Positions 45,159 to 62,708 of a DNA stretch of 64,000 nt are shown here, one piece after another. Under the pieces are notes generated by a model. That model searched no databases, was not told the DNA's origin, and saw only the letters and a list, made by a program, of their open reading frames with translations. The stretch lies in the NCBI RefSeq assembly GCF_011762095.1, contig NZ_JAASQO010000011.1, forward strand, positions 62,001-126,000, read 5' to 3'. A program made the position numbers and the translations under genes. The stretch comes from Parvibaculum indicum. GTDB taxonomy: Bacteria; Pseudomonadota; Alphaproteobacteria; Parvibaculales; Parvibaculaceae. Position 1 is the first letter of the stretch. Each line of letters opens with the position of its first letter.

Positions 45159-48100
45159 TCAGGCGACCGCCGGCAGGGAGCCGTTATCGCTGGCCGGGTC
45201 CTGCACCAACAGATGCTGCGTGCCGTTGTCGAAGTAAGGGAAAGCCGCGCCGTCTCCGACACCGGCAACAGCGCCGGTTCCGGTATCTCCGTTGTCGGAA
45301 AGACCCGGAATCTCACCCGACATATCGAGGACGCTTGCAGCATCGGGCATCACGCTCATGGACATCGCGGAGAAGGCGGAAACCTCGTCGCGCCCTGCGA
45401 CTTCGATGTGGACAGTGGCGCTCTCCCCACCGTCAATCGTGTAGGTAAAGCTGTCTGTCGCCGTTTGTCCGTCACCGAGTGCCTGTATGGAGCTGGCGGC
45501 GGTCGGATCATAGGTGACCTCGCCGGTGCCTGAATTGTAGGTCAGGCTTGCACCCATCGTACTTGTCGCCGAGACGGAGGAAATTGCTGCACCATCGCCA
45601 TCGTTCTGCAAAAGGATACTGCTGGAGAAGGTGTAGGGCGCGTCCTCGTTCACATTGTCCGCGTAGTTCTGACCATTGCCGCCGATCTCGGCCACCGTAC
45701 GGGCAGTGGAATAGGTGTCATAGGAGAATGAATCGTTCCACTGCGCACTGGAATTTCGGATCAGGTAATCTTCATCCCCGCCATACGGATCAACGCCGCT
45801 CGGCTGACCGGTCGCCCAATTGGTATAGGCACCGTCGACCGCACTACCCGTGTAGTCGCCTACCCAGAATGTCGTGCCCGACTCGGGACCGCCTTGCCAG
45901 ACCCAGTTGCCCTCCGAGGCAACGTCCGTGGCATTCAGCCATAAACGACCGGAATTGATTGTCGTGGCGAAATCGTTTTCTTCCGCGCTTGTAATGGTGA
46001 GGAGATAGCTGTCTCCAGGCAGTGCCGACGCAGCCGCGCTCTGGGCATAGGTCCAGTAATTGTCGGCCCCGATCAGGGAATAGGCATGGCCGTTCCCCTC
46101 GAAAACCGACCAGCCGTCCGGCACGGAGCTTATCGTATCGTCCAGTGCCGCAATGGGCGGCACTGTCTGTACGGTGATGTCGAGGGCGCTGGAGGCTGCG
46201 CTTTCATTGCCCGCGCCGTCGAGCGCCACCACGGTGAAGCTGTGGTCGCCATCCGGCAGGACGCTCGTGGTGTAGCTCCATGAGGTTCCCGTCATCGGCA
46301 CTGTCCCAAGCAGGACGCCATTGTCGTAGATATTGACGAGGGTCGCCCCGGGCCGGGTGCCCGTGAGCGTAATGGTGTCGTCATCCGTAATACCGTCGCC
46401 GACCGTGCCCGTGTCCGTGCTCCAGCTGTCGATGGTTGCCGCCGCGGGCGGTGTCGTATCGACCCAGACAACCTGAATGCCCGACGCGTCGCCCTGGTTG
46501 CCCGCCTCGTCCACGGCCCTCGCCGTCAGATAGTGATAGCCTTCCGGCAGGGTGGATGTCGTGACCGACCAGTCGCCATTGCCGTCCGCCGTCGTCACCG
46601 CGATCTGGCTGCCCTGGAAGAAGATCCGGACTTCTTCGCCCGCCCCCGCCGTGCCGGTAAGCGTCGGCGTGGTGTCGGAGGTCTGACCGTTGGCAATGCC
46701 GGTGTCGTCGACAAAGCCGGTGATGACGGGCGTGGCGGGGCCGATATTGTCGAGCGTGATCGTGCTCGTCGCCGCCGAAGACTGGTTGCCCGCGCTGTCC
46801 ACCGCATAGGCGCTGACAGTGATGTCCCCGTTCTCCAGACCGGAGATATTCGCGCCCGAGAGCATCCAGGACGATCCGTTCGCCACCGCTGTTCCGCTGA
46901 CCGTGGCGCCCAGACTGTCCGTGAAGGTGACATGGACGGACTGGGCTCCGCCCGCAACGGTGCCGGACACATTGAAGTAGTTGTCTTCGTTGCCGTTCAC
47001 GATGTTGTCGGTCGCAATCGGCGCAGAGAGAGAGACGGTCGGCGCGGAGGTATCGATGTTCACGAGACGCGTCGGGCTCCCGGTGCTCTGGTTGCCGGCC
47101 TCATCGACCTGCCGCGCAGTGAAGTAGTGGTAGCCGTCCGAGAGTGCGCCGGTGGTAAAGGACCAGTTTCCGGCTCCATCCGCCGTGGCCTCCCCCAGAT
47201 AGCCTCCGCCATCATAGATGCGAACGGTGGCGTCCGCTTCCGCCGTGCCGCTGAGCGTCGGCGTCGTGTCGCTCGTCTGGTTGTCCGAGCCGGAGCTGCC
47301 CGTGTCGTCCGACAGGCCGGTGATGCTCGGCGCCGCGGGCGCGACATTGTCCAGCGTGATGGTGCTTGTCACCGGGGAAGACTGGTTGCCCGCGCCGTCG
47401 ACCGCATAAGCGCTGACGGTGATCTCGCCATTCTCGAGGCCGGAGATATTAGCGCCCGAGAGCATCCAGGACGATCCGTTCACCGTTGCCGTCCCGCCGG
47501 CGGTGGCGCCCAGGCTGTCCGTAAAGGTGACATGGACCGTCTGGGCAGCGCCCGAAACGGTGCCGGACACATTGAAGTAATTGTCTTCGTTGCCGTTCAC
47601 GATGTCGTCGCTCGCGATCGGCGTCGAGATGGCGACGGTCGGCGCCGTCGTATCGATGCGCACGATATGCGTCGCGCTGTCCGCGCTCCGGTTGCCCGCG
47701 GCATCGGCCTGCCGGGCGGTGAGATAGTGATAGGCGTCGGAGAGCGCGCCTGTCGTGAAGCTCCAGTTCCCGGCCCCGTCCGCCGTGGTCTGTCCGATAA
47801 GACCGCCGCCGTCATAGATGTAAACGGTGGCGTCCGCATCGGCCGTGCCGGTGAGGGTCGGCGTATTGTCGCTCGTGTAATTGTCGGACGAAGAGCTGCC
47901 GGTATCGTCCGACATGCCGGTGATTGCAGGCGTCCCCGGAGGCGTCGTGTCGATCGTCACGTCAAGAGCGGCTGATGGATCGCTCGCCGAGGCCCCGCCC
48001 TGCGCCGTCGCAACGGCCGTGAATTCGTGATCGCCCTCTGCCAGCGTTCCGGTAGCGAAGCTCCAGTTGCCCGAGCCGTTCGCCCAGGTCACGCCGAGCG

Positions 48101-51100
48101 AAACCCCGCCATCGAATATCTCGATAGCGGCATAGGCAACCGCCGTCCCGGTGATCGTGAGCGTCGTATCGCTCGTAGCGCCGTCGCCGGCAACACCCGT
48201 GTCGCCTGAATAGGAGGAAATCACCGGCGCCGCCGTTTCGAGCGGCGGCGCGCTGCCGATGACGATGTCGAGCGCGGTCGATTCATCGCTGACATTCCCG
48301 GCACTGTCCGTTGCCTTCGCCGTAAAGCTGTAGCTCGCCTCGGAAAGTTCGGCGGTCGTAAAGCTCCAGTTTCCTGATCCGTTTGCCGTCACCGTGCCGA
48401 GCGAGAGCCCGTTTGCGAAAATCTCGACGCTGCTGTTCGCTTCCGCCGTCCCCGAGAGCGTCGGCGTCGTATCGCTCGTATAGCCGTCTCCCGTGGGCGG
48501 GCTGTCGTCGCTGAAGCCCGTGATGACCGGCGCATTGGGCGCCGTCGTATCGATAACGACGAATTGCACGTCGCCATAGGCGCTGTCCCGGCCTGCCAGA
48601 TCGGTCGCCTTGACCGTGATCGTGTGGACGCCTTCGGAGAACGTGCCCGTCGTATAGGACCAGTTGCCGTCGCTATCCGCGAGCGCCGTGCCGAGTACGG
48701 TTGCGCCGTCGCGGATCGTGACGGTCGCGTTCGCTTCGGCCGTGCCCGAAAGCGTCGGCGTCGTATCCGAGGTGCGGAAGTCGCCCGTCGCGCCGGTATC
48801 GTCCGACAGGCCGGTGAGCGTGGGAATGGCCGGCGGCGTCTGGTCGACGGTGAACAGGACCGCGTCGCTCTCGCCGCTCTCATTGCCGACATAGTCGCGC
48901 CCCGCGGCGGTGAACTCATGCGTGCCCTGCGGAAGCGCGGAGACGAGCAGCGTCCAGCTCCCGCCGCTGACATAGGCCGTGCCGACCTCGACGCCGCCGT
49001 CATAGACGACGACCTGTGTCGTGCCCGCCGCGGCCGTGCCCGAAAGCTGCGTCCAGTTGTAGGAGCTGATGCCGTCATCCGGCGCCGTACCGTTATCGTT
49101 GGTGAAGCCGGTGATCTCGGGCGCATCCGGCGGGGTCGTGTCGATATTGACGGTGACGTTGCCGGTCTGTGCGGAGCGGTTCCCCGCCGCATCGACCGCG
49201 CGCGCATAGAAATAGGTCCAGCCGTCCGGCATGGTTCCGGTCGACGCGGTCCAGTTACCGTCGCCATCCGCGACGCCGGTCGCGACGATATTGACGCCGA
49301 CATAGATGTTGACCGTCGCATTCGCCTCGGCCGTGCCGGTGAAGATCAGCGTATTGTCGGTGGTCTGGTTGTCGGCATTGCCGGTATCGTCGGAAAAGCC
49401 CGTGATGACGGGGACCGCGGGTGCCGTCGCATCGATGGTGAGGTCGAGGGAAGCGGTTTCGCCGCTTTCATTGCCGGCCCCGTCGCGCGCCACCGCCGTG
49501 AAGCTGTGATCGCCGCCGCCGAGAGTGCCCGTCGTAAAGGACCAGGTCCCGCCGCCCGTGACATAGGTCGTGCCGATCTCGACGCCGCCATCCATGATGA
49601 CGACAATCGAGCCCGCCTGCCCCGTGCCCGTCAGCGTCGGGGTCCTGTCGTTGGTCAGGCCGTCGCCGGCCGCCCCGCTATCGCTCGAGAAGCCGGTAAT
49701 CGCCGGCATGGCGGGCGCGGTCGTGTCGACGTTGATCACGACCGGGTCGGACCAGCCGCTGCTGTTCCCGGCCTCGTCGGTCGCACGGGCCTCGAATGCC
49801 GCGTAGCCTTCCCCGATTTCGCCCGTCGTCATGGTCCAGTTGCCCGCGCCGTCGGCCGTCGTCGTGGCGACGAGCCCGCCGCCCCGGAAAATCTGCACCG
49901 TCGCATTGGCTTCCGCCGTGCCGGTGAAGGTAAGCGTCGTGTCCGACGTCGAGCCGTCGGCAGCGCCCGTATCGTCGGACCAGTCGGTGATGACGGGTTT
50001 CGCGGACGCGGTTCCGTCGAACTCGAAATCATGCGTTGCCGTCAACGAGCGGTTGCCCGCCGCGTCCGTCGTATAGGCTTCGACGGTGATCGTCCCCTCG
50101 GCAAGACCGGAAATATCGGTGCCCGTCAGTACCCAATTGCCGACGCCGTCGATTGCCGCGCTGCCCGTAACGGTTGCGTTCAGGCCGTCGCGGAACGTGA
50201 TCTCGACGATCTGGCCCTCCGTCGCCGTCCCGGATACATCGAGAGCCGCCGCGCCTGTCATGCCGACGAGATCGTCGCCGTCGACGGGATCTGCGATCGT
50301 GACCGTCGGCGCGGTCGTATCCACGGTGACGTTGAATGTGGCGGAAGCCGGGCTCTGGCCGCTCGCAGGCGCCGTTGCGACCGCGGTGAAGGCATGCGCG
50401 CCCTCGCCAAGTTCTCCGGTATCGAAGCTCCAGTCTCCCGCCCCGTCCGCCGTCGCCGTGCCGAGCGATACGCCGTTCCGGAAGATTTCCACCGTGGCAT
50501 CTGCCGCGCTGGTGCCCGACAGCGTCAGGTTCGTATCGCCGGTGCGGAAGTCGCCAACCGTGCCGGTATCGTCGGTAAAGCCCGTGATGGCGGGTGCCGG
50601 CGTCGCCGGGACAGTGACGGTCACCTCAAAAGCATCGCTCGGATCCGAGACGTTGCCCGCCGCATCGGTCGCACGGGCGGTAAAGCTGTGGATCGCCTGC
50701 GCGAGTTCGCCCGTATCGAAGCTCCAGTAGCCTGCGCCGTCCGCCGTCACGGTGCCGAGGAGAGAGCCCTGGTCGAAGATGGCGATCCGCGCATCGGCCT
50801 CCGCCGTACCGGAGAGGGTCAACGTCGTGTCGGCGGTCATGCCGTCTCCCGCCGCTCCCGTATCGTCGCTGAAGCCTGTAATGACGGGCGCATCCGGCGC
50901 CGCGGTGTCGATGGTAACGTCGAGCGCCGCTGTCTTGCCGCTTTCATTGCCTGCGGCATCGCGCGCCGCCACGGTGAAACTGTGATCGCCGTCGCCGAGG
51001 TCCCCAGTGGCGAAATCCCAGCTTCCGCCGGCCGGGATCGCCGTTCCGATTTCCACGCCATTGTCGTAGATCGCGATGCGCGCGGCATCCGCGGGCGCGG

Positions 51101-54100
51101 TACCGGAAAGGGTGAGGTTCGCATCCGAAGTCACGTCGTCCGCCGCGCCCGTATCCTGCGAATAGCCGGTAATCGTCGGCACGTCCGGCGCCGCGGTGTC
51201 GATGATGACGATATAGGGATCGGAACTGCCGCTTCGGTTGCCCGCCTCGTCCGTGGCCCGCGCCGTGAAGCTCGCATAACCGTCGGTGATCGCGCTCGTC
51301 GTCGCGCTCCAGTTGCCGTCGCCATCCGCGACGCCCGTCGCCACGATGTTGCCTGCAAAATAGACGTTCACCGTCGCATTCGCTTCCGCCGTGCCGGTGA
51401 AGGTAAGCGTGTTGTCGCCCGTCTGCTGGTCGCCCGGCGTGCCCGTATCGGCGGAGAACCCGGCGATGACGGGCGCGGCCGGCGCGGCGTTGTCGAGCGT
51501 AACCGCCGCGTCCACCGTGCCGGAGCGGTTACCGGCCTGGTCCACCGCATAGGCCTCGACCGTGACACCGCCGTTCTGAAGTCCGGAGAGGTCGATCCCC
51601 GTTGCCGTCCACGTGCCCGCGCCGGTAACGACCGCCTCCCCGGTCGCGGTTGCCCCGCCTTCATCGGTAAAGGTGAGGAAGACGCGCTGGCCGCCCGCCG
51701 CCGTGCCGGACACGGAAAGCGAGCCGTCTTCCGCGGCATTGACAATGTTATCCACCGCGATTGGCGTCGTGATAACGATACCCGGCGGGGTGGTGTCGAC
51801 GGACAGCGTCATGTTTGCGGAGGGACCGCGATTGCCTGCCTCGTCTACCACGCGCACGGTCAGGCTGTGAGATCCCTCCGCCAGGGTACCTGTCGTAAAA
51901 CTCCAATTGCCGCTCCCGTCGACATTCGCCGTGCCAAGCAGCACCGCGCCATCGCGGATTTCCACCGTCCCGTTCGCCTCCGCCGTGCCGGCAAGCGTGG
52001 GCGTGGTGTCGCTGGTGCGGTTATCGCCGGGATTACCCGTATCGTCGGTAAAGCCTGTAATGACGGGTGCCGCGGGCATGACGTTGTCGAGCGTGACGGT
52101 CTCGTTGACCGTGCCCGACCGGTTGCCCGCCTGATCGACCGCATAGGCCTCGATCGTGATACCGCCGTTCTGAAGACCGGAAATATCGATCCCGTTCAGG
52201 GTCCATGTCCCCGTGCCCGAAACGGCCGCCTGTCCGGAAACGAAACCGCCCGCCCCGTCGGTCAGGGTCACGAAGACGCGCTGGCCGCCATCCGCCGTTC
52301 CGGAGAGGGTGAGCACATTGTCTTCACTCGCATTCACGAAGCCGTCGCCCGAAACCGGCGAGGCAAGCGTGACGCCCGGCGCAAGGGTGTCGACCTCGAC
52401 ATTATAGGAGAGGGAAGAAGGGCTCTTGTTGCCGGCCGCATCCTCCGCCCGTGCGGTAAAGGTGTGACTGCCGTCCGCGAGAGGCTGTGTCTCGAAGCTC
52501 CAGTTTCCGGCCCCATCCGCCGTCGCCGTCCCCAGAGAGGTCGCGCCGTCGAAGATCTCGACCGTCATGTTCGCTTCGGCCGTACCGGTGAGGGTCAGCG
52601 TGTCGTCGCTGGTATGGCCATCGTCCGGGGCACCGGTGTCGTCCGAGAAACCGGTGATCGCAGGCGTTCCGGGAGCAAGGCTGTCATGCGTGAAACTCGC
52701 GGTCGCCGTGCCGGAACGATTGCCTGCCTGGTCTTCCGCATAGGCCTCGACCGAGATCGTGCCTTCGTCGAGCCCGGACACGTCGACATGCTGCAGCAGC
52801 CAGTTGCCTGCGCCGTCCACGAAGGCAATGCCGTCGACTTCCGCGCCGCTGCCATCCGTAAACGTCACGAAGACGCGCTGACCGCCCGCCGCCGTGCCGG
52901 ACACCGAAAGCGAACCGTCTTCCGAGGCATTGACGGCTCCATCGCCGGACAAGGGTGTCGAGATCGCGATGCCGGGGGCTTCCGTGTCGATGGTGAGCGC
53001 GAACGACGAAGAGGACGCGCTCTCGTTGCTCGCCGCGTCCCGCGCCGTGGCGGTCAGGCTGTGCAATCCGTCGGAGAGCGCGGCCGTCGTGAAGCTCCAG
53101 TCGCCGTTCCCGTCCGCCATTGCCGTTCCGAGAAGGGTATTGCCGTCATAAATCTCGATTTCGGCGCCCGCCTCTGCCGTGCCTGAGAGCGTGGGCGTCG
53201 CATCCGCGGTCAGACGGTCGGCCGGTCGGCCTGTGTCGTCCGCATAATCCGTAATGACGGGTGCCGCGGGCGCCACGTTGTCGAGTTCGAATGTTTCCGA
53301 CGTTGTCGCCGAGCTGTTTCCCGCCGCATCGACGGCATAGGCCTCGACGGTGATCGTCCCGTTTTCAAGGCCCGAGATGTCGGCTCCCGAGATCGTCCAG
53401 TTGCCGTTGCCGTCGACATGCCCGCTCTCCGAGACGGTCGCACCGCTCCCGTCGCGAAAGGTCACGAAAACTTCGCTGCCGCCCGAAGACGTGCCGGAAA
53501 GCGTCAACGCCGCGTCGTCGGCACCGCTGACGATACCGTCGCCGAAGAGCGGCATCGCAATCGCGATGTCAGGGGCCTCCGTATCGACCGTGACATCGAC
53601 CGGGCCGGAGGACGTCCCGGCGCCGCCTTCATTCTCCGCCGTCGCGGTAAAGCTGTGCGCTCCATCCGCGAGCGCGCCGGTGGTGAAACTCCAGTCTCCA
53701 TTGGCATCCGCGGTCGCCGTACCGAGCCGTATAGCATCACCGTAAATCGTAACGGTTGCGCCTGCTTCCGCCGTTCCGGTCAGCGTGATCGTGTTGTCGG
53801 CGGTAATCCCGTCGCCCGGAAGCCCCGTATCGTCCGAGAAGGAGGAAATCGAGGGCGCATCGGGGGCGGACGCCAGGGAATCGTTCGAGCTGTCTAGCGG
53901 CGGCGGCGTATCGTCGGCGGCGGGCGAAGATTTTTGATGGCCGGTATCGCCGAAGGCGTTTCCGTTCGTACCGCCCTCGTCCGATGTGTCGGTCCAGCCG
54001 AAAAACCGAGCGAAACCCGCCGGCAGCGGCCCGTCGATCCCGATGCCGTCGATCGATGCCGCTTCGGCAAGGAAGTCGGCCCCGAACCCCGCAATGCGGA

Positions 54101-54278
54101 TCGTTCCGCCGGAACCGCTCAGAACGAGTTCACCCGCCTCCACATGAAGATCCTTCACGCCGTCCAGCGAGACGATCTCCGCCGTCACACCATCGGGTAT
54201 CGTGAAATTCTTCCCGGCCTCGACCGTGACAAGTTCCACGTTTCCGCCGACGCTCGTCAATTGAAGGACGATCTTCAT
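45159..54278 (-). CDS. Giant type I-secreted adhesin with Ig-like repeats and a lectin-like domain
   Basis: A 3039-aa protein. Residues 1-140 form a beta-rich prefix (MKIVLQLTSVGGNVELVTVE...) of the BapA type with an acidic, Pro/Ser-rich linker. I count 26 Ig-like modules of ~97-102 aa: 19 of an ITGFSDDTG...TPTLSGTAEA type and 7 of an SxPIxxDxIVNxxEDxxLxVSGT type. A C-type-lectin-like domain, a cadherin/VCBS-like module (VNEDAPYTFSSSILLQND) and a ~60-aa C-terminal tail follow. There are no RTX nonapeptides. The abundant DxDG/DDTG segments suggest calcium binding between modules. GGAGTAACAAGCG precedes the ATG. The locus order (TolC, adhesin, ABC, HlyD) indicates a self-contained secretion system for a surface adhesin in attachment or biofilm. 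Confidence 0.93.
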   Translation of the reverse strand: MKIVLQLTSVGGNVELVTVEAGKNFTIPDGVTAEIVSLDGVKDLHVEAGELVLSGSGGTIRIAGFGADFLAEAASIDGIGIDGPLPAGFARFFGWTDTSDEGGTNGNAFGDTGHQKSSPAADDTPPPLDSSNDSLASAPDAPSISSFSDDTGLPGDGITADNTITLTGTAEAGATVTIYGDAIRLGTATADANGDWSFTTGALADGAHSFTATAENEGGAGTSSGPVDVTVDTEAPDIAIAMPLFGDGIVSGADDAALTLSGTSSGGSEVFVTFRDGSGATVSESGHVDGNGNWTISGADISGLENGTITVEAYAVDAAGNSSATTSETFELDNVAPAAPVITDYADDTGRPADRLTADATPTLSGTAEAGAEIEIYDGNTLLGTAMADGNGDWSFTTAALSDGLHSLTATARDAASNESASSSSFALTIDTEAPGIAISTPLSGDGAVNASEDGSLSVSGTAAGGQRVFVTFTDGSGAEVDGIAFVDGAGNWLLQHVDVSGLDEGTISVEAYAEDQAGNRSGTATASFTHDSLAPGTPAITGFSDDTGAPDDGHTSDDTLTLTGTAEANMTVEIFDGATSLGTATADGAGNWSFETQPLADGSHTFTARAEDAAGNKSPSSLSYNVEVDTLAPGVTLASPVSGDGFVNASEDNVLTLSGTADGGQRVFVTLTDGAGGFVSGQAAVSGTGTWTLNGIDISGLQNGGITIEAYAVDQAGNRSGTVNETVTLDNVMPAAPVITGFTDDTGNPGDNRTSDTTPTLAGTAEANGTVEIRDGAVLLGTANVDGSGNWSFTTGTLAEGSHSLTVRVVDEAGNRGPSANMTLSVDTTPPGIVITTPIAVDNIVNAAEDGSLSVSGTAAGGQRVFLTFTDEGGATATGEAVVTGAGTWTATGIDLSGLQNGGVTVEAYAVDQAGNRSGTVDAAVTLDNAAPAAPVIAGFSADTGTPGDQQTGDNTLTFTGTAEANATVNVYFAGNIVATGVADGDGNWSATTSAITDGYASFTARATDEAGNRSGSSDPYIVIIDTAAPDVPTITGYSQDTGAADDVTSDANLTLSGTAPADAARIAIYDNGVEIGTAIPAGGSWDFATGDLGDGDHSFTVAARDAAGNESGKTAALDVTIDTAAPDAPVITGFSDDTGAAGDGMTADTTLTLSGTAEADARIAIFDQGSLLGTVTADGAGYWSFDTGELAQAIHSFTARATDAAGNVSDPSDAFEVTVTVPATPAPAITGFTDDTGTVGDFRTGDTNLTLSGTSAADATVEIFRNGVSLGTATADGAGDWSFDTGELGEGAHAFTAVATAPASGQSPASATFNVTVDTTAPTVTIADPVDGDDLVGMTGAAALDVSGTATEGQIVEITFRDGLNATVTGSAAIDGVGNWVLTGTDISGLAEGTITVEAYTTDAAGNRSLTATHDFEFDGTASAKPVITDWSDDTGAADGSTSDTTLTFTGTAEANATVQIFRGGGLVATTTADGAGNWTMTTGEIGEGYAAFEARATDEAGNSSGWSDPVVINVDTTAPAMPAITGFSSDSGAAGDGLTNDRTPTLTGTGQAGSIVVIMDGGVEIGTTYVTGGGTWSFTTGTLGGGDHSFTAVARDGAGNESGETASLDLTIDATAPAVPVITGFSDDTGNADNQTTDNTLIFTGTAEANATVNIYVGVNIVATGVADGDGNWTASTGTMPDGWTYFYARAVDAAGNRSAQTGNVTVNIDTTPPDAPEITGFTNDNGTAPDDGISSYNWTQLSGTAAAGTTQVVVYDGGVEVGTAYVSGGSWTLLVSALPQGTHEFTAAGRDYVGNESGESDAVLFTVDQTPPAIPTLTGLSDDTGATGDFRTSDTTPTLSGTAEANATVTIRDGATVLGTALADSDGNWSYTTGTFSEGVHTITVKATDLAGRDSAYGDVQFVVIDTTAPNAPVITGFSDDSPPTGDGYTSDTTPTLSGTAEANSSVEIFANGLSLGTVTANGSGNWSFTTAELSEASYSFTAKATDSAGNVSDESTALDIVIGSAPPLETAAPVISSYSGDTGVAGDGATSDTTLTITGTAVAYAAIEIFDGGVSLGVTWANGSGNWSFATGTLAEGDHEFTAVATAQGGASASDPSAALDVTIDTTPPGTPAITGMSDDTGSSSSDNYTSDNTPTLTGTADADATVYIYDGGGLIGQTTADGAGNWSFTTGALSDAYHYLTARQADAAGNRSADSATHIVRIDTTAPTVAISTPIASDDIVNGNEDNYFNVSGTVSGAAQTVHVTFTDSLGATAGGTATVNGSSWMLSGANISGLENGEITVSAYAVDGAGNQSSPVTSTITLDNVAPAAPSITGLSDDTGSSGSDNQTSDTTPTLSGTAEADATVRIYDGGGYLGEATADGAGNWSFTTGALSDGYHYFTARQVDEAGNQSTGSPTRLVNIDTSAPTVSLSAPIATDNIVNGNEDNYFNVSGTVAGGAQSVHVTFTDSLGATVSGTAVANGSSWMLSGANISGLENGDITVSAYAVDSAGNQSSAATSTITLDNIGPATPVITGFVDDTGIANGQTSDTTPTLTGTAGAGEEVRIFFQGSQIAVTTADGNGDWSVTTSTLPEGYHYLTARAVDEAGNQGDASGIQVVWVDTTPPAAATIDSWSTDTGTVGDGITDDDTITLTGTRPGATLVNIYDNGVLLGTVPMTGTSWSYTTSVLPDGDHSFTVVALDGAGNESAASSALDITVQTVPPIAALDDTISSVPDGWSVFEGNGHAYSLIGADNYWTYAQSAAASALPGDSYLLTITSAEENDFATTINSGRLWLNATDVASEGNWVWQGGPESGTTFWVGDYTGSAVDGAYTNWATGQPSGVDPYGGDEDYLIRNSSAQWNDSFSYDTYSTARTVAEIGGNGQNYADNVNEDAPYTFSSSILLQNDGDGAAISSVSATSTMGASLTYNSGTGEVTYDPTAASSIQALGDGQTATDSFTYTIDGGESATVHIEVAGRDEVSAFSAMSMSVMPDAASVLDMSGEIPGLSDNGDTGTGAVAGVGDGAAFPYFDNGTQHLLVQDPASDNGSLPAVA
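45690..46135 (-). other. C-type-lectin-like domain within the adhesin
   Basis: This segment encodes GNGHAYSLIGADNYWTYAQ ... SYLLTITSAEENDFATT ... GRLWLNATDVASEGNWVWQ ... YTNWATGQPSG ... EDYLIRNSSAQWND. This is the WIG/WND-type fold signature of C-type lectins (tryptophan-rich core, QPSG near the EPN/QPD sugar-binding position, final WND). It sits near the C-terminal, outermost end of the adhesin and is the likely ligand-binding tip. Confidence 0.8.
46150..53870 (-). repeat. Array of about 26 Ig-like modules in the adhesin gene
   Basis: Tandem ~290-310-bp units, by my reading 19 of one type and 7 of a second type, the latter sandwiched between the former in parts of the array. Modules begin near (P)xITGFxDDTG and end near VxIDTTAP. 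Confidence 0.85.
46741..47940 (-). repeat. Recent 600-bp tandem duplication inside the Ig array
   Basis: Two adjacent units, 46741-47340 and 47341-47940, each hold one module of each type and are nearly the same (for example ATTGTCGAGCGTGATCGTGC at 46746 and ATTGTCCAGCGTGATGGTGC at 47346, exactly 600 bp apart). Divergence is much lower than between other modules. Confidence 0.8.
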
Positions 54279-54348: not shown

Positions 54349-55674
54349 TCAATCGTCTCCGCTTGCGGCGGCGGGGGCGAGTTCGCCCATCGCCGCGACG
54401 ACGCCGTAAGCGGATCGCAGTTTGTCGAAGCGTGCGTCGAGTTCGGCGCGGTTCGCCGCGCGTTCCTCGTTCAACACGAAGAAAAGGTCGAGAAGGTCTC
54501 GCTGGCCGCCGATGAACTGCGCGTCGTAAACACGAACGAGTTCGCTCGCCGCGGCCTTGCGGCGCAGCAGCACCTGATACGTATCCCGGGCGGAACGATA
54601 GTTTTCCAGCGCCTTCAGAACGCCGAGCCGCACGTCGCGCGCGACATCGTGAATGCGGATCGACGCCGCCTGCTCGCGATAACGGGCAGCACTCGCATCG
54701 TAGAAAGCAGCCCCGCCCGTCGCGAAATTGTAGGTCAGCCGGAGACCGACATAATAGTCGTCGTCGGGCCCGGAAATGCCTTCGATATTGCGCCCGTTCC
54801 GCGCCCGCGCCTCGGCATCCAGGCGAGGGTAGAAGCTGGCTTTGGCAGCGTCGTGCGAACCGTCCGCCGCCAGCGCGCGGGCGCGCGCCGCGGCGAGCGC
54901 CGGGTGATGCCGCTCCGCCCCGGCCACGGCTTCGTCGGGTGTCAGATCCACGATCTCCACAGGCTCCACCGGCGGTTCGAGCGCGTCCGGCGCCGCGCCG
55001 ATCAGCTCTCGGTAGCGCGTTTCCGCTAGGACGAGTTCGCGTTCGGCGTTCATGACGAGATAGCGCGCTTCTTCCGTCTGGCTGCTGCCGACGACGGTGA
55101 GCGAACGAAGCCCCGGGTCCGCCTTCGCACGGCGCTCGATACGGTCGGCGATATTTCGCGCGCGTTTCTCATGATCTTTCAGTAGGGCCAGCCTCTGCCG
55201 CGCCTCGAGAACGGAGAGATAGGCATCCGCCGCGTCGAACGCGACATCGTTGAGCTTCGACTGGGCGGTGAGGGTCTCGGCCTCCGCATCCGCCTTCGCG
55301 GCGGAAACGCGAGCGGGCGTCCGCATACCGTCGAAAATCGGCTGCGTCACGGTCAGCGAATATTCCTTGGCCGTCAGGGTGCGCTCGAAGGTCGGACGAT
55401 CCGTGTTCTCCCGCCGGATGGATCCGTCGAGCGAAACCGTGGGGAAATAGCCGGAACGCGCGGCCCCGACCTCCCGCTCCGCCGCCTTCGCCTCGAGCCG
55501 TGCCGCCTTGGCGCCCGGATGGTCGCTGATGGCAAGGCCCATCGCGTCATCGATTGTGAATGCCTGCCCGTTCGACGCGAAGACTGCCGTCGTACACAGC
55601 GTAACGATCATCCCGAGACCGGGGAGCGCACCGGCCCGCCGGCTGCCCCGCCGGACACATCTTCCACTCTTCAT
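54349..55674 (-). CDS. TolC-family outer-membrane channel for type I secretion
   Basis: A 441-aa TolC/AggA-type outer-membrane efflux protein. It has a signal region (LGMIVTLCTTAVFASNGQAFTID), then two long coiled-coil repeats typified by DAMGLAISDHPGAKAARLEAKAAEREVGAARSGYFPTV and HHPALAAARARALAADGSHDAAKASFYPRL. The AggA-like SLDGSIRRE and VGLRLTYNFATGGA strands are present. The frame is open to 55743; the ATG at 55674 after AAAGGGA is chosen. First gene of the adhesin secretion operon. It could also serve the RND pump, which lacks its own channel gene. Confidence 0.92.
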   Translation of the reverse strand: MKSGRCVRRGSRRAGALPGLGMIVTLCTTAVFASNGQAFTIDDAMGLAISDHPGAKAARLEAKAAEREVGAARSGYFPTVSLDGSIRRENTDRPTFERTLTAKEYSLTVTQPIFDGMRTPARVSAAKADAEAETLTAQSKLNDVAFDAADAYLSVLEARQRLALLKDHEKRARNIADRIERRAKADPGLRSLTVVGSSQTEEARYLVMNAERELVLAETRYRELIGAAPDALEPPVEPVEIVDLTPDEAVAGAERHHPALAAARARALAADGSHDAAKASFYPRLDAEARARNGRNIEGISGPDDDYYVGLRLTYNFATGGAAFYDASAARYREQAASIRIHDVARDVRLGVLKALENYRSARDTYQVLLRRKAAASELVRVYDAQFIGGQRDLLDLFFVLNEERAANRAELDARFDKLRSAYGVVAAMGELAPAAASGDD

Positions 55675-55978
55675 TTCGGGATTCCCTTTCAGCCGCCCTG
55701 TCTGCAAGAGCTGCATCAAAATGAGAATCCCCCCGATATTCAACGATTTTTATTGATAATGATTAATAAACGAGACTCAATTCATCGGGTTGATAACAAA
55801 ATCATGGCAATAGATATTATATTCAATTTATGAATACTTACAATTCATGCCATGAATGAACCCATACTTTCGGTCTACCCGGACCAAAATGAAAAATGCA
55901 TGCAAGATGCGGTTTTTGAGGTCGCGATTTTATGTATGGTGACCGCTGTTTGATGCGAGGCTTCGGGAGCTACGACGC
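55675..55978. promoter_or_regulatory. AT-rich control region between the secretion operon and LysR
   Basis: The 304-nt gap is strikingly AT-rich from about 55740 to 55870 against a GC-rich background. It contains an imperfect dyad TTTATT...AATAAA (55749-55770) enclosing GATAATGATT, which resembles a Fur-type site, and a perfect LysR-like dyad at 55843-55857. It presumably holds both divergent promoters. Confidence 0.6.
55843..55857. promoter_or_regulatory. Candidate LysR operator
   Basis: Perfect dyad ATTCATG-C-CATGAAT containing a T-N11-A core, 122 nt before the LysR GTG start and 169 nt before the TolC-family gene start. Confidence 0.6.
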
Positions 55979-57384: not shown

Positions 57385-57520
57385 TTCTCTGATTTCCCCC
57401 TCTCCCTGCCTGAAATTTGCCTGCCCCCTCGCGCAGATGTGTCTTTGCATCCCCTGCCGCGATGTGGATCATGTCGCCCATGGCAATCCGCGCAAACAAG
57501 CGGCCTTCAGGGAGAACATC

Positions 57521-58156
57521 ATGAAACCCGTCCTTTACGACTACACCGCCGCGCCGAGCCCGCGCCGGGCGCGCATCCTGCTGGCGGAAAAAGGCATCGA
57601 GCACGAAAACGTTCAGGTGGACCTTGCCAGGGGCGAACAGCTTTCCGACGACTACAAGAAGATCAATCCGGCCTGTACCGTCCCGGCGCTGAAGCTCGAA
57701 AGCGGGACGATTCTCACCGAAAATCTCGGCATCGCGGCCTGGGCGGAGGCGGTGAAGCCCGAGCCCCCGCTTCTGGGCACCACGCCGGAGGAAAAAGGCC
57801 TGGTGCTGGGCTGGAATGCGCGGATCGAGTTCGAAGGCTTCATGCCCATCGCCGAGGTGCTGCGCAACACCTCCAAGGGCATGGCGGACCGCGCCCTTCC
57901 CGGCCCCGTCAATCTTGCGCAGATTCCCGAACTGGCAGAGCGCGGCGCGGTGCGCCTCACCCGGTTCTTCGACGTTTTGAACGAGCGCCTGAAAGGCCGG
58001 AACTATATCGCCATCGACGGCTATTCCCTCGCCGACATCACGGCGCTTGTCTGTGTGGATTTCGCCAAATGGGTGAAGCACGAGCCGAAACCCGAGCATG
58101 AAGACCTCAAGCGCTGGCACGCAGCGGTTTCGGCCCGGCCCAGCGCCAGGGCATAA
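57521..58156 (+). CDS. Glutathione S-transferase family protein
   Basis: A 211-aa GST with an N-terminal thioredoxin-like domain (VLYDYTAAPSPRRARILLAEKGIEHENVQVDL, with Ser in the catalytic-site region, and TVPALKLESGTILTENLGIA) and an all-helical C-terminal domain (NYIAIDGYSLADITALVCVDFAKW). The class is unclear. The frame is open upstream, but the ATG at 57521 after AGGGAGAAC is preferred. It follows tRNA-Pro. Confidence 0.9.
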   Translation: MKPVLYDYTAAPSPRRARILLAEKGIEHENVQVDLARGEQLSDDYKKINPACTVPALKLESGTILTENLGIAAWAEAVKPEPPLLGTTPEEKGLVLGWNARIEFEGFMPIAEVLRNTSKGMADRALPGPVNLAQIPELAERGAVRLTRFFDVLNERLKGRNYIAIDGYSLADITALVCVDFAKWVKHEPKPEHEDLKRWHAAVSARPSARA

Positions 58157-58188
58157 TCGTCGGCCTCAAACGAGCGTGTACCGTCGCG

Positions 58189-58722
58189 ATGATCGAAACA
58201 GCCCGGACAAGACTTAGGCAGTGGCGAGAATCGGACCGGGACGCGTTCGCCGCCCTCAACGCTCATCCGGAGGTCATGCGGGATCTGGGCGGCCCTATCG
58301 GCAGGCGTTCGAGCGATGAAAAGTTTGATCGCTATGCCGAGGCCTATGAAACGCACGGCTTCACCCGCTGGGCGATTGAAACCTTCACGGGAAAGTTTCT
58401 CGGTTATGCGGGCATCATGCCGTCGCGTCCCGGACACCCTCTCGGCCCGCATACCGAGATCGGCTGGCGGTTGCGGCGCGAGGCATGGGGGCACGGATAT
58501 GCCACGGAAGCCGCCGCTGCCGCGCTTGTGGACGGCTTTGAACGCTGCGGGCTGACGAAAATATTCGCCTATACCGCTCCCGACAATGTGCGGTCGCAGG
58601 CGGTGATGGACCGGCTCGGCCTCGTTCGCTCCGTCTCGCTCGACTATGAGGAACCCCATAATGGCGGCTTGTGGCGGGGGCTTGTGTGGGTCGCCGAGCA
58701 CCGGCCCTCAATTGACACCTAG
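58189..58722 (+). CDS. GNAT-family N-acetyltransferase (RimJ/RimL type)
   Basis: A 177-aa acetyltransferase: TARTRLRQWRESDRDAFAALNAHPEVMRDLGG, IGWRLRREAWGHGYATEAAAAALVDGF (acetyl-CoA-binding loop) and VRSQAVMDRLGL. It most resembles the Acetyltransf_3 group that modifies ribosomal proteins or small molecules; substrate unknown. It starts 32 nt after the GST and may be cotranscribed with it. Confidence 0.88.
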   Translation: MIETARTRLRQWRESDRDAFAALNAHPEVMRDLGGPIGRRSSDEKFDRYAEAYETHGFTRWAIETFTGKFLGYAGIMPSRPGHPLGPHTEIGWRLRREAWGHGYATEAAAAALVDGFERCGLTKIFAYTAPDNVRSQAVMDRLGLVRSVSLDYEEPHNGGLWRGLVWVAEHRPSIDT

Positions 58723-58749
58723 AACCGCGCCCCTATAGTGCCGCTCGCT

Positions 58750-58970
58750 TTTATGGTTCTTCCCGTATGTCGGAAACGGCAAGGAAGAGGCAAGAGGGAA
58801 CAGGGTGCGGCGCGCCGAAGCGCGTCAAGTCCCTGGCTGCCCCCGCAACTGTGAGCGGCGAGGCCGCGTTTCATGACATGCCACTGGCCGTTGGTCCGGA
58901 TTTCCGGATCGGCCGGGAAGGCGAGACGCCGCCGACGACCCGCAAGCCAGGAGACCTGCCAGAAAGCGCG
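58750..58970 (+). promoter_or_regulatory. Cobalamin riboswitch
   Basis: Conserved elements appear in order: GGGAACAGGGTGCGGC near 58796, CTGCCCCCGCAACTGTGAGC near 58836, GCCACTGG at 58880, and the B12 box GCAAGCCAGGAGACCTGCC at 58942-58960. It lies upstream of a btuB-type receptor and should shut it down when cobalamin is plentiful. A 210-nt leader follows the aptamer, with GC-rich hairpins that could form the expression platform. End points are approximate. Confidence 0.9.
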
Positions 58971-59182
58971 TCATCTGCCGGTGGCCGGGGTGTGCCAGCG
59001 GGGCGGTGATTTCCGCTGATGGTGACGCGTCGGGTCGATGCGCGTCGCCGGAGCCTTTTCCCGGCAGACCATTGCCTGCCGCGTTTCCCGACAAGCGGCA
59101 CTCTCTCGCTTCCCGTATATGCGCCTCCCCGCCGGTTCCTGCGGCCCGGGGTTTGCCGCGATCATGTTACGGGGGTTCACCC

Positions 59183-61135
59183 ATGTTGAAATTCGAGCGG
59201 CGTTCCATCGCCCTTCTCGCCGTCGCAGCCTGTGCCGCGACAACGACCGCCACCTACGCCCATGCCGAAACGGACGCGATTTCCGACGGCATCCTGATTA
59301 CCGGCGGCCTCGAACCGCTTCCCACGAAGGAAGTCACTTCGAGCTATACGATCATCACTGCGAAAGACATTGAAGAGCATCAGTACCGCACAGTAACGGA
59401 AGCTCTGCGCGCGGTGCCCGGTATCCATGCCGTACAGCAGGGTGGCCAGGGCACCATCACCAGTGCCTTCCTGCGCGGCGCCAATTCCAACTAAACGCTT
59501 GTGATGATCAACGGCCAGCCGGTCAACGATCCTTCATCGCCGACCAACGCTTTCAATTTCGCCGACCTCACGACGGAGAATGTCGAGCGCATCGAAATTA
59601 TGCGCGGTCCGCAGTCTGCTCTTTACGGCAGCCAGGCCATGGGTGGTGTCATCAACATCATCACCAAGAAAGGCGCTGCTGCGCCAGGCGGAAGCCTCCG
59701 CCTCGAAGCGGGTACGCGCGGCCGCTTCAATGCGGCGGGCACGAGCGGCGGCAGCTTCGGAAGCCTGTCCTATTTCGCCTCTCTGTCCCGCCAATACACG
59801 CATGGCACCGACATAACGCCCGGCAAATACCGTTTCGGCGTACCGCGTGAGCGCGACGGCTATGAAAACATTACCGGCTCGCTACGCCTCGACAACAGGT
59901 TCGGCGAAAACCTGAGGGGCACGCTCTTCACGCAGTTCAGCGACACCGATACCGATCTCGACAATTTCGGCGAGGATATCAACTACAGGGGACGGACATG
60001 GCAGTTCACCAGCAATGGTTCGCTGTCAGGTTCCTATTTCGGCGGCAAGGTGCGCCCCACCCTGTCGGCCTCCTTCATGCAGATACGCCGCAATGACGAG
60101 AACCCGCCGGACACGTATGCGCCGACGACCAATGTGAACACCACCTATTTCGGACGACGCTATACGGCCAGCATCGACACTGCGATCGACCTGCTCGAAT
60201 GGAACACGTTGGTCGTCGGCGCCAAATGGTCCCGGGACGAACTCGACTCCACCGGCTTTTCCAATAGCTCCTGGTCGTCCGCAGTGCAGAATTCCCACGC
60301 ACGCGAAAATGCCACAGCCGTCTACGCCACCGAAAATCTGAATTTCGGCGAGCGCGTCTTCGCACTTCTGAGTGTGCGTTACGACATGCCGGAGAAATTC
60401 GACAATCAGGCCACGTTCACCATCGCGCCCGGCTACTACCACCCGGAAACGGACACACGCATCACGCTGAGCTACGGCACGGGCTTCAAAACACCGTCTC
60501 TCTATCAGCGTTTCGGATTCACGCCGGATTCTCTCACGAGCGGCGCATTCACCGGCAACCCGAACCTTTCTCCAGAGCGGAGCCAGGGATGGGAAGTCTC
60601 CGTCGATCAGGGCCTGTTTGCCGAACGGGTCCGCGTCGGCGTCACTTATTTCATGAACCGGGTCAAGGATCCGATCATCACCCAGTACGATACCTTCTAT
60701 ATCAACTCGACATCCGTGAACGGACCCGACTTCCGCAGCCATGGAATCGAGAGCGAAGTCGATGCCCAGATCCTCGACAATCTGTCGGCGACCCTCTCCT
60801 ATACCTTCACGGTGATGGAGCCGGGCAACACCAATGCCACATCCCGTCGGCCGCGCCACAAGCTCTCCTTCTCGGCGAACTGGGCACCGGACGAGCGCAC
60901 CACGGTTGCGACGGATGTCAATTTTGTCGATGTCTATGCCGATCCGGGGTTTTATGGCGGCATTGTCAATCCGACACCCTATACAACGGTCGACGTCGCC
61001 GTGACGCGCAAACTCACCGACATGATTTCAGTGTCCGGCAAGGTGTCGAACCTGCTTGACCGCACCTACTACCCCGCCGACGGCTATGAGGCCCCCGGCT
61101 TCGAAGCACTCGCGGGCGTGACCGTCTCGTTCTGA
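59183..61135 (+). pseudogene. btuB: TonB-dependent vitamin B12 receptor (BtuB type) with an in-frame stop
   Basis: The intact length would be 650 codons: signal peptide (residues 1-28, ending TYAHA), plug domain (SSYTIITAKDIEEHQYRTVTEAL, RGANSN, IEIMRGPQSALYGSQAMGGVINIITKKG) and a barrel ending GFEALAGVTVSF. Codon 104 (59492-59494) is TAA where BtuB-type plugs read RGANSN-x-TLVMING; a single C-to-T change from CAA (Gln) would explain it. The remaining frame is uninterrupted and well conserved, so the lesion is recent, a sequence error, or read through. The upstream cobalamin riboswitch supports a B12-uptake role. The start is placed at ATG 59183 after GGGGGT. Confidence 0.88.
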
Positions 61136-61158
61136 CGGCACGCGCGGTAAAACGTAAG

Positions 61159-61192
61159 ATGCCCGCTCCTTCCGGGGAGCGGGCATTTTTTT
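61159..61192 (+). terminator. Rho-independent terminator of the btuB unit
   Basis: An 11-bp stem ATGCCCGCTCC / GGAGCGGGCAT closely followed by TTTTTT, 23 nt after the btuB stop. Confidence 0.9.
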
Positions 61193-61212
61193 GCGCGTCG
61201 ACCGCTTCTTCC

Positions 61213-62058
61213 TCAGCGGCCGGTGAAGTTCGCCGCGCGCTTTTCCACGAAATGCGCGACGCCTTCCTTGAAGTCCTCGCTCGCAAAACTCTTCTGCATC
61301 TCATCGTCGCCGATGGCGAGCGCTGTGTTGAAGTCCTGGAACATCGCCTTCCAGACCTGCCGCTTCATCACCGTCATGGAACGCGGCGACACGCTTGTGG
61401 CCAGCATGCGGGCATAATCCATCACATTGTCCATGAAATGCTCGGCGTCGAAGCTGCGATTGACGAGACCGATACGCTCGGCCTCGCGCCCGTCGAATTT
61501 GCGCGCCGACATCAGCAGGTCCATCGCGTGGGCGGGCCCCACCAGATGCGGCAACAACCATGAAACGCCATGCTCGGCCACGAGCCCGCGGCTCGCAAAG
61601 GCGGTGGTGAATTTCGCATCCGTCGCGGCGAAACGCATATCGGCATAAAGCGCCACGACAAGGCCGAGCCCGGCGGCGGGTCCGTTGATCGCGGCGATGA
61701 CGGGCTTGGGCACGTCCATCAGGAAGCCGAAGCGCCCGCCATAGGCGCCTTCGAGATCGGGGCCGGCGGCGGCCCTGAACGCGGCCTCCGCATTTTTTTC
61801 GTCGGACACTTCGCGCTTTTCGCCGCCCTCCGCCTCGATCTTCTGGAGAAGGTCCATATCGGCACCGGCGCAGAAACCGCGCCCGGCTCCGGTCAGCACG
61901 ATCACGCGCACTTTCTCGTCGGCGCTGGCCTCGGCCATGGCGGCCTTTACGCTCTTCTCCATCGCGCCGGTCCAGGCATTCAGCTTGTCCGGCCGGTTGA
62001 GCGTGACCACGGCCACGCTGTCCTCCACCGCATAGAGGACATCCTCATAAGCGCTCAT
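61213..62058 (-). CDS. Enoyl-CoA hydratase/isomerase family protein
   Basis: A 281-aa crotonase-fold protein with AWTGAMEKSVKAAM, the oxyanion-hole motifs GAGRGFCAGADMD and INGPAAGLGLVVALYADMRFA, and Glu in GLVAEHGVSWLLPHLVG. These hydrate or isomerise acyl-CoA double bonds in beta-oxidation-like pathways. The start follows GAGGGAGGAACGACA. It is on the opposite strand to btuB and stands alone. Confidence 0.92.
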   Translation of the reverse strand: MSAYEDVLYAVEDSVAVVTLNRPDKLNAWTGAMEKSVKAAMAEASADEKVRVIVLTGAGRGFCAGADMDLLQKIEAEGGEKREVSDEKNAEAAFRAAAGPDLEGAYGGRFGFLMDVPKPVIAAINGPAAGLGLVVALYADMRFAATDAKFTTAFASRGLVAEHGVSWLLPHLVGPAHAMDLLMSARKFDGREAERIGLVNRSFDAEHFMDNVMDYARMLATSVSPRSMTVMKRQVWKAMFQDFNTALAIGDDEMQKSFASEDFKEGVAHFVEKRAANFTGR

Positions 62059-62142
62059 TGTCGTTCCTCCCTCGTCCCGTTCCAGTAAGGAGGACTATAG
62101 CGCTCAAGGCGGGGGCCCGCGAAAGGGGCTTTCGGGCGCGGA

Positions 62143-62439
62143 TTATTCGGCGTCGGTTTGCGCGGCAGGCGCCTTGTCGTTTTGCTGCCGGCGCACCTGC
62201 CAGGCATCCTTCAGCGCAGCGCGGCAAGGTTCGGAAAACTGCGAAGCGTTGTCGCGCACGCAGTTGCGCATCTTCTCTTTTCCGCCGCCGATCGCGGACT
62301 GGCAATATTGCTGAATGTCCTGACCGCAACTCTGGCGGACCTGGGCGCGCGTGTCGGCCTTGCCGGCGCTCACGGCGGCCAGCACCAAAAAGAAACCGGC
62401 TATTACGGATATCGTGGATTTGCTGAGCAGGGATGTCAT
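62143..62439 (-). CDS. Small exported Cys-rich repeat protein
   Basis: A 98-aa protein with a signal peptide (MTSLLSKSTISVIAGFFLVLAAVSAGKA) and one Cys-rich GLG1-type repeat (CGQDIQQYC ... KMRNCVRDNASQFSEPC) with four Cys spaced for two disulfides. It has a charged, disordered tail. Such periplasmic proteins are common in alphaproteobacteria with no fixed function. ATG at 62439 after GGGG. Confidence 0.75.
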   Translation of the reverse strand: MTSLLSKSTISVIAGFFLVLAAVSAGKADTRAQVRQSCGQDIQQYCQSAIGGGKEKMRNCVRDNASQFSEPCRAALKDAWQVRRQQNDKAPAAQTDAE

Positions 62440-62708
62440 CGCCGTACCCCGAAAATGGTTGCCGTGCCTGTGTCTGCTACGGCCGGAGAGGGTGTTTCCG
62501 TCGCACCGTCCTATCTCTTTGCGCGTCGGACAGCGTCCTGTTTGAGCGCCAATCGCGGCAAAAGGCGGGCGGGTCCAAGGCCATTCCGGGGAAATCCGGG
62601 AAGCGCGCGCCAGGAATGTGAACCATATTCACGCTTTTGTTGCCGCATGCGCCGCCCGCCCTCATAATCGGCGCGAACAAAATCCTGAATACAGAGGGGA
62701 ACTGGGAC

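What the first reader, a model, noticed from the sequence alone, without database searches (positions are those of the whole stretch)
59183..61135. Riboswitch-controlled btuB interrupted by a single in-frame TAA
Codon 104 (59492-59494) is TAA within the otherwise conserved RGANSN-x-TLVMING plug motif. The 546 codons downstream are open and conserved, so a single CAA-to-TAA change is the simplest explanation. With a functional-looking riboswitch and terminator intact, the gene may be a very young pseudogene, a phase-like variant, subject to readthrough, or a sequence error.
Basis: partly seen in the sequence, partly recalled or inferred. Interest (0 to 1): 0.6.

Follow-up and report, generated by a model that had tools for sequence, protein, structure and literature searches.

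The report
Stop codon in a vitamin-B12 receptor gene
A vitamin B12 outer-membrane receptor gene in a Parvibaculum bacterium is cut short by one stop codon; most of it differs sharply from the sister species as if swapped in from elsewhere, and the genome carries a second, intact receptor of this type, so this looks like an ordinary young pseudogene or a sequence error.

Summary
Observation confirmed: the 651-codon btuB-type frame 59183-61135 has one in-frame TAA (59492-59494, codon 104) behind an intact cobalamin riboswitch. All 30 homologues compared have a sense codon there. Genus: Parvibaculum (inferred).

Best reading: a young loss-of-function allele. There is no frameshift and little sign of decay. 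Recoding and phase variation found no support: none of 43 tRNAs reads UAA, TAA ends a neighbouring gene, no repeat tract lies at the site. A sequence error stays possible; no reads or sister strains were available.

Riboswitch and codons 1-63 match the sister genome G015; from codon 64 to the gene end it is far more diverged, and the barrel is closest to G021 (67% aa). The stop lies in this differing part. (2) The genome has a second, intact, riboswitch-preceded BtuB-type receptor near transporter and cob genes, not found in 26 other genus genomes, so loss may be tolerable.

'CAA to TAA' is plausible but undecided: G015 has CAA there, the nearest barrel relative CAC. Interest is low.

The parts
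58712..58739 (+). sigma-70-like promoter (TTGACA-16-TATAGT) just before the riboswitch
   Evidence: 11 of 12 consensus matches; 2 such sites found in the region against a mean of 0.7 in shuffles; a consensus match only
58736..58977 (+). cobalamin riboswitch aptamer (RF00174)
   Evidence: 110.5 bits, full model 1-189; sister genome G015 has the same element at 106.3 bits in front of its unbroken gene
59183..59371 (+). codons 1-63: signal-peptide and TonB-box region, the segment shared with the sister genome
   Evidence: DNA 77-97% identical to G015 in 30-base bins; a tree of codons 1-64 (63 columns) joins window and G015 at 100/98, grouping with G021 rejected, p-AU 5.9e-08
59372..61135 (+). codons 64-650: rest of plug and beta-barrel, sharply different from the sister genome; downstream junction between 61135 and 61231
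   Evidence: DNA 38-75% (median 59%) identical to G015 in the 18 bins of 59401-61200, against 82-96% at 57401-59400 and 88-93% at 61301-62000; tree of codons 76-651 joins window with G021 at 100/100, rejects window+G015, p-AU 5.4e-101. For codons 64-111 the nearest row varies
59492..59494 (+). in-frame TAA, codon 104, in the middle of the Plug domain
   Evidence: sense codon in 30 of 30 homologues
59501..61135 (+). downstream open frame (544 codons from GTG, 543 from the ATG at 59504); a re-initiation product would lack signal peptide and TonB box
   Evidence: half Plug + barrel
61156..61192 (+). intrinsic-terminator-like hairpin with U run behind the gene
   Evidence: -26.3 kcal/mol, z -4.35. 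The pattern scan (2 terminator-like sites found, 2.4 expected) listed this stem on the minus strand only; the run of 7 T on the plus strand is read

Best explanation
A btuB-type TonB-dependent receptor gene of a Parvibaculum species whose plug-and-barrel part differs from its sister species through recombination with a diverged allele, and which carries a nonsense codon (TAA, codon 104) that ends translation inside the plug. Transcription and riboswitch control are probably intact, but the product is a 103-residue stub and, if ribosomes re-initiate at GTG/ATG 59501/59504, a barrel without signal peptide; neither should transport B12. The cell probably keeps B12 uptake through a second, intact BtuB-type receptor on contig C8. 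Shown: the stop, the sense codon in all homologues compared, the mosaic, the second receptor gene. Inferred: that the stop is real rather than an error, that the protein is absent, that the second receptor carries B12 and made the loss tolerable, and that this genome rather than G015 received the foreign segment.
For: Single TAA in an otherwise open frame; 0 of 30 homologues have a stop there. Little sign of wider decay: 2 of 100 columns invariant in the other rows deviate, against 0-8 in each of the 26 other rows; against the nearest barrel there is no gap on the window side and one on the other over 587 columns; dN 0.26 and dS 1.0 against G021, dS near saturation. Redundancy: C8:68218-70119 encodes an intact 633-aa receptor (TIGR01779 best hit, 259 bits, also below cut-off) with its own riboswitch (120 bits), two BtuC-type permeases and a substrate-binding-protein-like gene around it and cob genes upstream; in the 26 other genus genomes the best match to its central 512 residues is 31% identical. 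Mosaic. The genus uses B12 (MetH match in 27 of 27, over cut-off in 23), and no genome passes the CobI cut-off (0 of 27).
Against: No reads, no second strain of the species, no expression or uptake data: one substitution error in a 37-contig draft would look the same, and absence of other decay is what an error predicts too. At columns conserved in at least 24 of 26 rows, 19 of 172 deviate in the window gene (1 of 27 before the stop, 18 of 145 behind it); no control was made at that level, so mild relaxation before or since the stop is not excluded. The redundancy argument is circumstantial: the second receptor is known by sequence only and may take another ligand.
Confidence: 0.66

Rival explanations
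1. Sequencing or assembly error: the real gene has a sense codon and makes an ordinary, recombinant BtuB-type receptor.
For: Isolated single change, no frameshift; draft assembly of 37 contigs; a codon that is sense in all 30 homologues compared.
Against: Where looked at, the assembly shows no internal stops: none in the 9 own-genome receptor matches (one of them is the window gene's own downstream part, several are short), the 5 permease matches, CobN or MetH. This is a small sample. Substitution errors are rare in good drafts (general knowledge).
Confidence: 0.26
2. Strain-level polymorphism under phage or bacteriocin selection: the TAA is a segregating receptor-null allele. This overlaps with the best explanation and adds a cause to it.
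For: In Salmonella, resistance to BtuB-targeting phages comes through btuB mutations (passages of PMC13196588); the barrel at this locus differs between sister genomes as if exchanged.
Against: I looked for no phage or bacteriocin of Parvibaculum and have no population data.
Confidence: 0.15
3. Programmed readthrough or recoding of UAA gives a full-length receptor.
For: Only that the downstream frame is open and conserved.
Against: 43 tRNAs found, none with an anticodon for UAA, although the list is incomplete (it lacks a GAU-anticodon Ile tRNA and a UGC-anticodon Ala tRNA); TAA ends the GST gene where its homologues also end; 0 of 30 homologues have the stop; no local structure beyond shuffles (z -0.12).
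Confidence: 0.02
4. Two-piece receptor: stub and re-initiated barrel assemble in the outer membrane.
For: GTG and ATG begin 7 and 10 bases after the last base of the TAA.
Against: The barrel piece would have no signal peptide, and the break lies inside the Plug domain.
Confidence: 0.01

Closest known systems
BtuB, TonB-dependent vitamin B12 receptor (TIGR01779) under a cobalamin riboswitch (RF00174)
   Same: Plug and barrel domains, best NCBIfam hit, riboswitch leader, TonB-box-like DGILITG after the signal peptide (motif recalled, from no call)
   Different: Interrupted at codon 104; below the family's curated cut-off (so is the intact C8 paralogue)
Gonococcal hmbR, a TonB-dependent haemoglobin receptor gene with a premature stop codon (PMC3068627, passages seen)
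   Same: A TonB-dependent receptor gene silenced by a premature stop in one lineage and intact in a relative; the same paper reports recombination in meningococcal hmbR
   Different: Haemoglobin receptor; the recombination passages seen concern shorter stretches, here nearly the whole plug and barrel differ
btuB mutants selected by BtuB-targeting phages in Salmonella (PMC13196588, passages seen)
   Same: Change of btuB as a simple escape route
   Different: Laboratory selection; no phage of this Parvibaculum was looked for

Membership tests
BtuB / TonB-dependent B12 receptor | Plug plus TonB-dependent barrel domains | tested here: met
   Pfam PF07715 in two halves and PF00593, above gathering
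BtuB / TonB-dependent B12 receptor | TIGR01779 score above curated cut-off | tested here: not met
   51.5 and 179.1 bits in two pieces, cut-off 599.7; the unbroken C8 paralogue also falls short with 259.1. It is the best family hit; therefore I call it btuB-type, not BtuB proper
BtuB / TonB-dependent B12 receptor | Cobalamin riboswitch leader | tested here: met
   RF00174 at 58736-58977, 110.5 bits; also before the orthologous genes of the 4 genomes looked at, G015, G021, G014, G017
BtuB / TonB-dependent B12 receptor | Transports B12 | not testable with these tools
   needs an uptake assay
Nonsense pseudogene | In-frame stop absent from homologues | tested here: met
   0 of 30 homologues have a stop there
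Nonsense pseudogene | Further decay of the frame | tested here: inconclusive
   No frameshift; 2 of 100 invariant columns deviate, other rows 0-8; but 19 of 172 at the looser level, without a control
Nonsense pseudogene | Stop present in reads or in a second strain | not testable with these tools
   no reads, no second strain held
Stop-codon recoding / suppression | tRNA reading UAA or reassigned code | tested here: not met
   43 tRNAs found, none with the anticodon; list not complete; TAA terminates GST
Stop-codon recoding / suppression | Stop conserved among relatives | tested here: not met
   0 of 30
Phase variation by slippage | Repeat tract at the lesion | tested here: not met
   two short two-copy direct families and two short inverted pairs in 59350-59650, none spanning the stop

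The most novel reading that the evidence does not exclude
The btuB locus of Parvibaculum is an exchange site at which the surface-exposed barrel is swapped between lineages while riboswitch, signal peptide and TonB box stay native, probably under phage or bacteriocin pressure; this genome then silenced the swapped receptor after a second riboswitch-controlled receptor system arrived. G021's gene looks recombinant too: its first 75 residues are 90% identical to G012's gene, its barrel at most 49% to any row of the alignment but the window's.
Probability: 0.3. Interest if true: 0.4.

Novelty: new member of a known kind. Interest (0 to 1): 0.2.

Why it matters
As it stands, a small annotation point: the locus should be marked as an interrupted btuB-type gene, and the C8 receptor considered as the working one. 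If the barrel exchange holds up in more genomes, Parvibaculum btuB would be a clear case of receptor-barrel swapping behind a conserved regulatory and energy-coupling front end.

Tried and rejected
Phase variation: no repeat spans the stop. Suppressor tRNA or changed code: not supported. A structured element behind the stop: fold no better than shuffles. Rapid divergence instead of recombination: disfavoured by the sharp drop in identity to G015 between two conserved flanks and by the trees; a second, shallower dip (51-80%) at 62101-62700 around a small hypothetical gene and intergenic DNA shows that not every dip need be an import. De novo B12 synthesis as the reason for the loss: the C8 cluster has CobN, CobQ, CobT, CobD, but no CobI passes its cut-off in any of 27 genomes, so I do not claim full synthesis. 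Named record of this genome: the scan of genome contigs gave only Parvibaculum sp. DS1.004 (67%; a contig of 19,854 bases like G021:C34, so presumably G021) and one unrelated short match. Papers: 'Parvibaculum' with 'cobalamin' listed 5 papers, none about its btuB by title and abstract start; some searches were searched for analogues. Only listings were seen, except the passages; PMC6118388 was of little use. On re-checking I ran, which weakened my first view that the CAA route was unlikely.

Full report
OBSERVATION. The window is G000:C11:62001-126000 of a 4.02 Mb, 37-contig genome. The nearest named relative of the receptor is Parvibaculum sp. DS1.004, a MAG, on a contig of 19,854 bases, the same length as G021:C34, which holds the best same-genus match; so the genus is taken to be Parvibaculum. 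With G000, 27 genomes of the genus are held, 19 of them at least 90% complete and at most 5% contaminated. The frame 59183-61135 has 651 codons with one internal stop, TAA at 59492-59494, codon 104. The two pieces match complementary halves of the Plug domain, followed by the TonB-dependent barrel, with the B12 receptor family as best NCBIfam hit for both, below its cut-off. The leader holds a full cobalamin riboswitch at 58736-58977 (110.5 bits), preceded by a promoter-like site at 58712-58739 (11 of 12 matches); behind the gene is a strong hairpin with a T run. The downstream open frame is not chance: 0 of 2000 shuffles have no stop.

RELATIVES. I compared 30 homologues: 24 of the 26 other genus genomes (G013 and G020 gave no good match), 3 from other genera of the family, 2 from other families, and the own-genome paralogue. 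One (L034) is cut at a contig end. All 30 have a sense codon at the stop's column: 23 Gln, 6 His, 1 Tyr. G021, nearest over the barrel, has CAC; CAA occurs in 3 of 30, among them the sister genome G015. Over codons 100-111, a conserved motif, several Gln-coding rows are closest in DNA (G017 31 of 33 bases, G014 30, G015 29). At 100 columns invariant in the other rows the window gene deviates in 2, each of the 26 other rows in 0-8; at columns conserved in at least 24 of 26 rows it deviates in 19 of 172, 18 of them behind the stop, without a control. There is no frameshift. dN 0.255 and dS 1.02 against G021 speak of past constraint, not of the time since the stop.

MOSAIC. The sister genome is G015: the decarboxylase-like protein downstream is 95% identical there and at most 82% in the 21 other genus genomes matched. 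GST, GNAT and the enoyl-CoA-hydratase-like protein are 92, 86 and 94% identical to G015's. In 100-base bins DNA identity to G015 is 82-96% at 57401-59400, which includes riboswitch, leader and codons 1-63, falls to 38-75% (median 59%) in the 18 bins of 59401-61200, and is back at 88-93% at 61301-62000; the fine bins drop at 59371 and recover at 61231. There is a second dip to 51-80% at 62101-62700. Over codons 76-651 the window groups with G021 (67% amino-acid identity, 100/100), and grouping with G015 is rejected (p-AU 5.4e-101, 30 rows, L034 left out). Over codons 1-64 it groups with G015 (100/98), and grouping with G021 is rejected (p-AU 5.9e-08, 31 rows, 63 columns). These trees used the simpler LG+G4 model, long branches were flagged, and I chose the two groups after seeing the identities. 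For codons 64-111 the nearest row varies: at 64-99 G004 (69%) and G021 (68%) are about equal, so the fine structure of the junction is open. G021's gene looks recombinant as well: its first 75 residues are 90% identical to G012's, its barrel at most 49% to any row other than the window. The stop thus lies about 40 codons inside the stretch that differs from the sister genome. Which of G000 and G015 received foreign DNA is inferred, not shown.

SECOND RECEPTOR. The same genome has six cobalamin riboswitches; the other 26 genus genomes showed 0-3 each, with only 63 first-look candidates scored per genome. One, at C8:67857-68053, precedes an intact 633-aa BtuB-type receptor at C8:68218-70119, between two BtuC-type permeases, with a substrate-binding-protein-like gene behind it and CobN, CobQ, CobT and CobD upstream. 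In the 26 other genus genomes the best match to its central 512 residues is 31% identical; 8 of the 27 genomes miss the completeness or contamination limit. G021 and G025 do hold another receptor-like gene (29-30%) next to a distant CobN-like protein (29-35%); one search lists no riboswitch on G021:C1, and on G025:C7 only ones far from that gene. Permeases of this family are common in the genus (25 of 27 genomes). The genus relies on B12 (MetH match in 27 of 27, over cut-off in 23) and no genome passes the CobI cut-off (0 of 27; sub-threshold matches in 25), so uptake probably matters. This genome also has the B12-independent MetE, second gene behind another riboswitch. That the second receptor makes the loss tolerable is inference.

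ALTERNATIVES. Readthrough or recoding: 43 tRNAs found, none reading UAA; the list is incomplete, since it lacks a GAU-anticodon Ile tRNA and a UGC-anticodon Ala tRNA, so an odd tRNA could have been missed. TAA ends GST in the same window at the place where its homologues in G015, G017 and G021 end; the stop is in none of the 30 homologues; no special fold. Phase variation: no repeat spans the stop. Error: cannot be excluded without reads; other genes of this assembly that were matched carry no internal stops, a small sample.

VERDICT. Observation right; interpretation partly right. Most likely an ordinary young nonsense allele of a recombinant receptor gene, probably made redundant by a second system, with sequence error as the main rival. 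TonB-dependent receptors that recombine, and ones silenced by a premature stop, are known: Neisseria hmbR shows both (PMC3068627, passages seen), and btuB mutation is a known route to phage resistance in Salmonella (PMC13196588, passages seen).

Noticed in passing
L050 (G021:C34), gene at 5.9-8.0 kb: G021's btuB-type gene also looks recombinant: front 90% identical to G012's gene, barrel 67% to the window's and at most 49% to other rows.
   Followed up: partly
G000:C8:50001-82000 (L046, L047): Cobalamin cluster with three riboswitches, intact BtuB-type receptor, two BtuC-type permeases, CobN, CobQ, CobT, CobD; other genus genomes have at best a 29-35% CobN-like match (2 of 26). A urease-like gene with an Rfam 5' ureB RNA match (RF02514, 110.8 bits) follows.
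   Followed up: partly
G000:C8:53299-53432: Weak cobalamin riboswitch match (33.0 bits, just over the gathering score of 31.5) in front of cobT.
   Followed up: no
G000:C4:56674-60354: MetH lies in one open frame of 1322 codons here (G008 and G023 similar, G026 with stops counted), while most other genus genomes list its two parts with separate open frames.
   Followed up: no
G013 (same genus, 98% complete): No good match to the btuB-type locus (best E 8e-5; none at 1e-10), whereas 24 of the 26 other genus genomes have one; it is a draft of about 400 contigs.
   Followed up: no
window 62101-62700: Second dip in identity to sister genome G015 (51-80%) around a small hypothetical gene (62143-62439) and intergenic DNA.
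   Followed up: no
window 45159-54278, minus strand: 3039-codon frame of many Ig-like repeats with a TolC-like gene (54349-55743) beside it, in the style of a large secreted adhesin; read from the translation only.
   Followed up: no
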